Translations under genes and position numbers: made by a program | Part shown: in pieces, positions 6,145 to 29,584 of the stretch | Layout of the letters: the number at the start of each line of letters is the position of its first letter | Position numbering within the stretch: the stretch's first letter is position 1 | Assembly (NCBI GenBank): GCA_012517355.1 | Contig: JAAYVD010000132.1 | Coordinates: forward strand, 1 to 44,300 | DNA from: Candidatus Rifleibacteriota bacterium | Lineage (GTDB): Bacteria; Muiribacteriota; Ozemobacteria; Ozemobacterales; Ozemobacteraceae | DNA: 44,300 nucleotides | Direction of reading: 5' to 3' | The notes under the pieces: generated by a model | Databases searched by the model: none | The model's input: the letters and a program-made list of their open reading frames with translations, nothing else | Told to the model about the DNA's origin: nothing

Positions 6145-6299
6145 GACACTTCAGCATTTCGACTGACGTATCAACCACGTTCTTCATCCACCCATCGATG
6201 TTGATGGCGCCGTTCGTGCTGGCGACTCCCTTCGCCATTTCCCCCATTTCTCCCCTTCCCCTGCCGCCCTCGAGGGTTCTGTCAAACTGCTGAAGTCTC
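6145..6299 (+). mobile_element. MITE-like element, copy 1
   Basis: 155-bp member of a three-copy family (others at 8226-8381 and 29414-29570, same orientation). The ends form a terminal inverted repeat matching at 16 of 19 positions (GACACTTCAGCATTTCGAC against the reverse complement of 6281-6299). The interior has a short hairpin around ATCGAT and a long pyrimidine-rich tract. Flanking 8-mers (6137-6144, 6300-6307) resemble each other only when offset by one base (TTTCCG/TGTCCG), so the target duplication appears decayed. No transposase. Confidence 0.72.
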
Positions 6300-6335
6300 C
6301 TGTCCGTTTCAAGGCTGATAGACCACGCAACAGAG

Positions 6336-6456
6336 TTTCCGCGAGGTGAACACATCAGCGTTCACCTCGCCAGCAGAAAGGGTCCAGGGCCATCGGCCCG
6401 GGTGGGGTGAAGGGGCAAAGGCTATTCGGCAAACCTTGATGCGGGTCGCGGAAAAA
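6336..6456. repeat. 120-bp structured interspersed repeat, copy 1
   Basis: About 87% identical by hand alignment, without gaps, to 29221-29340. It contains a perfect 11-bp hairpin (GCGAGGTGAAC 6341-6351 / GTTCACCTCGC 6360-6370, 8-nt loop), then an imperfect CCAGGGCC-ATC-GGCCCGGG hairpin. Its ends pair as TTTCCGCGA (6336-6344) / TCGCGGAAA (6446-6454). It could be a second palindromic mobile repeat or a structured RNA. The remaining bases to 6589 show nothing recognisable. Confidence 0.65.
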
Positions 6457-8135: not shown

Positions 8136-8225
8136 TGGCAAGGCCGTCGCCGTCGGCTTCGCCGTAGAGGCCGTGTCCCGCGCGTGGCGAAGTCGGTCCG
8201 CCCGTGGGGATATGCCGCCGTTCAT

Positions 8226-8381
8226 GACACTCCAGCATTTCGACTGACGCATCAATCCACGTTCTTCATCCACCCGTCGATGCGGATGGCGCCGATCGTG
8301 GAGGCGACTCCCTTCGCCGTTTCCCCCCTTTCTCCCTTTCCCCTGCCGCCCTCGAGGTTTCCGTCAAAATGCGGAAGTCTC
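8226..8381 (+). mobile_element. MITE-like element, copy 2, with perfect 8-bp target-site duplication
   Basis: A 156-bp element bounded by terminal inverted repeats matching at 15 of 19 positions (GACACTCCAGCATTTCGAC against the reverse complement of the right end). It is immediately flanked on both sides by the same 8-mer CCGTTCAT (8218-8225 and 8382-8389), as expected for a target-site duplication. The right-hand duplication abuts and overlaps the -35 box of the downstream operon, so the insertion sits at that operon's promoter edge. No coding capacity for a transposase. Confidence 0.8.
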
Positions 8382-8388
8382 CCGTTCA

Positions 8389-8417
8389 TTGACTTTTCCA
8401 AAGGGGGGGAATAGCTT
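8389..8417 (+). promoter_or_regulatory. candidate promoter of the GNAT-thiolase-DUF35 operon
   Basis: TTGACT (5/6) at 8389-8394 and TAGCTT at 8412-8417 with a 17-base spacer. The -35 box begins at the last base of the MITE's right target duplication. Confidence 0.45.
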
Positions 8418-29077: not shown

Positions 29078-29220
29078 AAGGGGCCCCTGGAGCCTGCTGG
29101 GAAAACGCGGCCACCTTCAATCCTTGGAGATTGGCTCTGGCGGCTGATGCCGGCGGGGCAAAGGGCCCGCAAAAAAAACGCTACCGTCCGGTCCAGGGCT
29201 AACGGACCGCGAAGCGGCGC

Positions 29221-29340
29221 TTCCGCGAGGTGAACGCGTCAGCGTTTCCCTCGCCAGCAGAAAAAGTCCAGGGCCATCGGCCCTGGTGGGGTGAAGGGGC
29301 AAAGCCCCTTCGGCAAGCCTTTATGCGGATCATTGAAAAA
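29221..29340. repeat. 120-bp structured interspersed repeat, copy 2
   Basis: Partner of 6336-6456. Three hairpins in series: GCGAGGTGAACGC / GCGTTTCCCTCGC (29225-29237 / 29242-29254, two internal mismatches, loop GTCA); CCAGGGCC-ATC-GGCCCTGG (29268-29286, perfect); AAGGGGC-AAA-GCCCCTT (29294-29310, perfect). The bases from 29078 to 29220 include a further short hairpin and an A8 run but no gene. Confidence 0.65.
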
Positions 29341-29413
29341 AAGAGGGCCCCTTTGCCCTGGGGAAACCCTCATCTGGCAATGATCAGGAACATGGTACGG
29401 TGTCACCGGTTTC

Positions 29414-29570
29414 GACACTCCAGCATTTCGACTGACCCATCAATCCACGTTCTTCATCCACCCATCGATGTGGATTGCGCCGATCGTGCTGGCGACCCTC
29501 TCCGCCACTTCCCCCCCTTCCTCCCTTTCCCCTGCGGCCCTCGATATTTCTGTCGAAAGGCTGAAGTCTC
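29414..29570 (+). mobile_element. MITE-like element, copy 3, with 8-bp target-site duplication
   Basis: A 157-bp element with terminal inverted repeats matching at 16 of 19 positions. Flanked exactly by CCGGTTTC (29406-29413) and CCGATTTC (29571-29578), a 7/8 match expected from an ageing target duplication. Same orientation as the other two copies. Located between the structured repeat and the 3' end of the beta-propeller gene. Confidence 0.78.
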
Positions 29571-29584
29571 CCGATTTCCCATCT

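What the first reader, a model, noticed from the sequence alone, without database searches (positions are those of the whole stretch)
8218..8389. Three-copy MITE family with 19-bp terminal inverted repeats and 8-bp target duplications
Elements at 6145-6299, 8226-8381 and 29414-29570 share about 156 bp, the same orientation and ends of the form GA(C/G)ACTNC.GCATTT.GAC. Copy 2 is flanked exactly by CCGTTCAT on both sides and copy 3 by CCGGTTTC/CCGATTTC, at the same distance from the inverted repeats. That is the signature of insertion by a DDE transposase making 8-bp duplications (IS256, ISL3 and IS66 families do so). No transposase is encoded, so they would be mobilised in trans. Differing decay of the duplications suggests several rounds of movement.
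Basis: seen in the sequence. Interest (0 to 1): 0.72.

Follow-up and report, generated by a model that had tools for sequence, protein, structure and literature searches.

The report
High-copy MITE with 8-bp target duplications
The three look-alike 156-base stretches are copies of a small parasitic DNA element that cannot move on its own; about 90 copies and fragments are scattered through this one bacterial genome, most of the complete ones still flanked by an 8-base duplication of their target, which makes it a new family of a well-known kind whose helper enzyme was not found.

Summary
The three copies are real and belong to a family of about 90 copies and fragments at E<=1e-10 in the window's own 7.1-Mb genome. 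Sequence identity stops sharply at 17/19-bp terminal inverted repeats. Flanking duplications are 8 bp: 67% left-right identity in 40 copies against 32% after shuffling, and 71% against 34% in 17 further copies. One copy lies inside another repeat family with a perfect duplication (CTTTATGC), and 18 uninterrupted stretches of that repeat serve as empty sites. The family is essentially confined to this species: 39 other genomes of the phylum show nothing beyond one or two relics in a congener. Divergence (8.6% from consensus, about 15% between the two halves of a duplication) points to an old burst. No transposase with matching ends was found. IS256 and IS6 transposases are absent, and the ISL3, IS4/IS5-type and IS1595 transposases present have other ends. 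It is therefore a type II MITE with an unidentified, perhaps lost, partner. New family, known kind.

The parts
6145..6299 (+). MITE copy 1 (155 bp, no recognisable target duplication)
   Evidence: alignment; one search match 90%, E 1.1e-53 to copy 2
8218..8225 (.). 8-bp target duplication, left of copy 2 (CCGTTCAT)
8226..8381 (+). MITE copy 2 (156 bp), non-coding
8226..8244 (+). left terminal inverted repeat of copy 2 (GACACTCCAGCATTTCGAC)
   Evidence: exact TIR pattern match
8363..8381 (-). right terminal inverted repeat of copy 2 (GAGACTTCCGCATTTTGAC read from the end inwards)
   Evidence: exact TIR pattern match
8382..8389 (.). 8-bp target duplication, right of copy 2 (CCGTTCAT)
29406..29413 (.). 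8-bp target duplication, left of copy 3 (CCGGTTTC)
29414..29570 (+). MITE copy 3 (157 bp)
29571..29578 (.). 8-bp target duplication, right of copy 3 (CCGATTTC, 7/8)

Best explanation
A non-autonomous DNA transposon (MITE) about 156 bp long. Its 19-22-bp imperfect terminal inverted repeats (GA(C/G)ACT(C/T)CAGCATTTCGAC) were recognised in trans by a transposase that made 8-bp staggered cuts in AT-centred targets (roughly G/C-A-W-W-W-W-T-C), so each insertion duplicated 8 bp. Shown: the sharp ends, the 8-bp duplications, pre-insertion (empty) sites in other repeats, copy number, species restriction, and decay consistent with an old burst. Inferred: that the enzyme was a DDE transposase of an IS now lost, decayed or unassembled, and that movement has ceased.
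For: Sharp boundaries of identity in 40 aligned copies. Left-right flank identity peaks at 8 bp: 0.669 against 0.324 +/- 0.028 shuffled, repeated in 17 further copies at 0.706 against 0.345 +/- 0.047. TIR pattern found 177 times in the genome against 6 for the reversed control. 92 sequence-model matches at E<=1e-10. Paralogous empty sites: one copy inside a rep2 repeat with perfect CTTTATGC duplication and 18 uninterrupted rep2 stretches aligning across the junction, plus insertions into a third repeat family and into another MITE. The duplications match in age: about 15% left-right mismatch in the 27 copies with 6/8 or better, and 15.2% pairwise element divergence. No Rfam match in the window, and covariation is essentially absent.
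Against: No autonomous element with these ends was found in the genome, in 39 relatives or by a TIR pattern scan of the GTDB contigs. About 13 of 40 copies, window copy 1 among them, have no clear duplication. The 15% TSD figure is taken only from copies selected for 6/8 or better, so it is biased low.
Confidence: 0.95

Rival explanations
1. A MITE mobilised by the ISL3-family IS that is still present in this genome, despite different inverted repeats.
For: That IS is multi-copy (fragments at four contig ends with near-identical sequence), inserts in AT-rich tracts and in one case beside the rep2 repeat, and ISL3 elements make 8-bp duplications (general knowledge).
Against: Its right end reads GGTTCATCCGACAAGAG, unlike GA(C/G)ACT(C/T)CAGCATTTCGAC. 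The MITE family is old (8.6% from consensus) whereas the IS copies are almost identical over the stretch seen.
Confidence: 0.07
2. A dispersed structured RNA or regulatory repeat (REP-like or terminator-like) kept for its function rather than a transposon.
For: Short, no Pfam-like coding sequence expected at 156 bp, lies between the likely genes in the window, and can fold.
Against: No Rfam match; folding no better than shuffles (z about -1.2); covariation term -0.08 kcal/mol, with 2 of 13 pairs showing a compensatory change in one sequence each. 8-bp duplications and empty sites show insertion.
Confidence: 0.03
3. A variant of the best explanation: the autonomous partner is still in the genome, but in the contig gaps or in a transposase family not searched (IS66, ISAs1, IS1182, ISKra4, ISLre2 and others).
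For: The assembly is 184 contigs at 96% completeness; a multi-copy IS in it is broken at contig ends. Only five Pfam transposase families were searched.
Against: 32 fetched regions around TIR sites show only MITEs or their fragments, none a TIR pair at IS distance enclosing new sequence. The family's age makes loss plausible.
Confidence: 0.3

Closest known systems
Prokaryotic MITEs, type II (as defined in PMC10969869)
   Same: Under 500 bp, imperfect TIRs of 4-30 bp, direct repeats that decay with age, no coding capacity for a transposase, high copy number, lies between likely genes in the window, lower GC than the host
   Different: No autonomous relative identified; family found in one species only; 8-bp duplications (length differs between MITE families)
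Chunjie MITE of Geobacter uraniireducens (PMC10969869)
   Same: About 95 full and partial copies of a roughly 200-bp mostly intergenic MITE, many lacking TIRs or duplications
   Different: No sequence relation was tested or claimed; different host
S. pneumoniae BOX/RUP/SPRITE clusters (PMC10969869)
   Same: Several small repeat families clustering and inserting into one another, as seen here with rep2 and rep3
   Different: Different host; sequence relation and mobilising enzymes not compared

Membership tests
MITE | Short (<500 bp) with TIRs of about 4-30 bp | tested here: met
   155-160 bp in most copies; TIR 17/19 in consensus
MITE | Target-site duplication of fixed length | tested here: met
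   8 bp
MITE | No transposase encoded; multi-copy | tested here: met
   156 bp, too short for a transposase; about 90 copies and fragments at E<=1e-10
MITE | Lower GC than host | tested here: met
   56-60% GC against 69.7% for the window
MITE | Located between genes | tested here: inconclusive
   The three window copies lie in gaps between the likely genes; not measured genome-wide
MITE | Autonomous IS with the same ends | tested here: inconclusive
   None found; assembly incomplete and not all IS families searched
IS256-derived | IS256 transposase in the genome | tested here: not met
   PF00872: no match in own genome
IS6-derived | IS6/IS240 transposase in the genome | tested here: not met
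   PF13610: no match in own genome
ISL3-derived | ISL3 element with matching inverted repeats | tested here: not met
   ISL3 present but its right end is GGTTCATCCGACAAGAG
IS1595-derived | IS1595 transposase flanked by matching inverted repeats | tested here: not met
   One PF12762 match; no TIR pair around it
IS66-derived | IS66 transposase with matching inverted repeats | not tested

The most novel reading that the evidence does not exclude
The family was spread by a transposase of an undescribed IS family (ends GA(C/G)ACTYC..., target about GAWWWWTC), in a genome where at least two MITE-like families with 8-bp, AT-centred duplications insert into or beside one another and build nested repeat islands.
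Probability: 0.12. Interest if true: 0.45.

Novelty: new member of a known kind. Interest (0 to 1): 0.27.

Why it matters
It adds a well-documented high-copy MITE family in a phylum for which only 40 genomes were held for search. The family shows insertion history unusually clearly because other repeats provide empty sites. It otherwise behaves as MITEs are expected to behave.

Tried and rejected
Structured RNA: rejected. Solo right ends as ends of a longer IS (L044, L052, L059, L064, L067): printed and compared; no shared sequence of IS length next to them was found, so they look like truncated MITEs. Partner search by family (PF00872, PF01610, PF01609, PF13610, PF12762) with TIR checks of every locus returned: nothing. 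GTDB-wide exact TIR pattern: 5 single hits, none paired. Viral-contig scans with internal motifs: chance hits only. Plasmid search: none. Empty sites in congeneric genomes were not attempted; paralogous repeats served instead.

Full report
Observation. The three copies are at the stated places and identity stops at the stated ends. Copy 2 has an exact 8-bp duplication and copy 3 a 7/8 one; copy 1 has none that can be recognised. A match of 7/8 or better at that spacing has a chance of about 0.001 in this window.

Genome-wide family. The window is a whole contig (C32) of a 7.11-Mb, 184-contig genome. A BLAST search with copy 2 gave 41 matches with only 40 candidates scored. A sequence-only model built from 35 copies gave 131 matches at E<=0.01 and, by my count of the list, 92 at E<=1e-10, including fragments. 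The 19-bp TIR pattern with up to 3 mismatches occurs 177 times against 6 for the reversed control. Copies lie in both orientations.

Ends and target duplications. In 40 copies aligned with 100-bp flanks, conservation starts at GACACTCC and stops at GAAGTCTC, with nothing conserved directly outside. Comparing left and right flanks for lengths 3-12, 8 bp stands out: identity 0.669 against 0.324 +/- 0.028 for shuffled partners, with 27 of 40 copies at 6/8 or better. The smaller excess at 7 bp (0.421 against 0.291) comes from poly-T/A and shifted matches of the same duplications. The result repeats in 17 further copies, of which one (L053 284-439) was also in the first set (0.706 against 0.345 +/- 0.047). 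Base counts over the duplicated 8 bp suggest a symmetric target near G/C-A-W-W-W-W-T-C.

Empty sites. The copy in L065 lies inside a copy of another repeat (rep2) with a perfect CTTTATGC duplication. Joining the flanks and removing one CTTTATGC restores a sequence that aligns across the junction to 18 uninterrupted rep2 stretches, without a gap in most of those shown. Copies in L026, L006, L045 and L035 similarly restore members of a third repeat family, and L060 restores part of another MITE, less cleanly. These are paralogous, not orthologous, empty sites, but they show precise insertion.

Age and spread. Mean divergence from the consensus is 8.6% and pairwise divergence 15.2%. The left-right mismatch of the 27 recognisable duplications is about 15% (33 of 216 positions), the same as the pairwise element divergence, though this figure is biased low by the 6/8 selection. 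That fits one main old burst followed by neutral decay. A subfamily (L027, L035, L037-L039) shows there was more than one source copy. Among 39 other genomes of the phylum none has an excess of the TIR pattern comparable to this one; the congener G002 has one diverged 159-bp TIR pair and one solo end.

Mechanism and partner. The anatomy is that of a non-autonomous element moved in trans by a transposase making 8-bp staggered cuts; a DDE enzyme is inferred. I looked for the partner by fetching 32 regions around TIR sites (none encloses a longer element), by transposase family, and by a GTDB-wide TIR pattern scan. IS256 and IS6 transposases are absent. An ISL3-family IS is present at contig ends but with a different end. 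IS4/IS5-type (PF01609) and IS1595 transposases have no MITE TIRs around them. The partner is therefore unidentified: lost, unassembled, or in a family not searched.

Not an RNA. No Rfam family matches in the window, copy 2 does not fold better than shuffles on either strand, and the 35-copy alignment has essentially no covariation.

Comparison with what is known. By the features listed in the review PMC10969869 this is a type II MITE: size, TIRs, duplications, copy number and lower GC than the host (56-60% against 70%) were met; a partner IS was not found; intergenic location was checked only for the three window copies. Families of similar copy number (Correia, Chunjie, ERIC) are described in that review. 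The finding is real and well supported, but of a known kind.

Noticed in passing
window 6302-6456 and 29181-29341; L157-L186: A second, younger repeat family (rep2, about 160 bp, CTACCGTCCGGTCC...GCGGATCATTG, several apparent internal hairpins, about 95% identical, at least 40 copies with 143 candidates) also carries 8-bp AT-rich target duplications (0.835 against 0.375 shuffled), so it too looks like a MITE. Its ends share RTCCG at positions 6-10 with the ISL3 end, which may be chance.
   Followed up: partly
L005, L009, L044, L048, L055, L059, L064, L065, L067: rep2 often lies directly beside or around the MITE; in L005/L169 the rep2 duplication TTTTTTGA includes the first two bases of the MITE, so rep2 inserted later there, while in L065 the MITE inserted into rep2.
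   Followed up: partly
L118, L119, L120, L122 (ends of contigs C77, C153, C6, C14): A multi-copy, nearly identical ISL3-family IS breaks the assembly; right end GGTTCATCCGACAAGAG, inserted in AT-rich tracts, once beside rep2.
   Followed up: partly
L006 1658-1761, L046 2054-2169, L048 3379-3490, L052 1272-1532: A third dispersed repeat (rep3, about 110 bp, ATCGATCCGAAGCTTTTCTGATGAACAGG...) that has served as insertion target for the MITE several times; further short repeat families appear.
   Followed up: no
L049 4001-4133; L058; L067; L073; contig C77 80370-80822: Head-to-head, tail-to-tail and tandem arrangements of MITE halves or copies, such as two right ends joined in L049.
   Followed up: no
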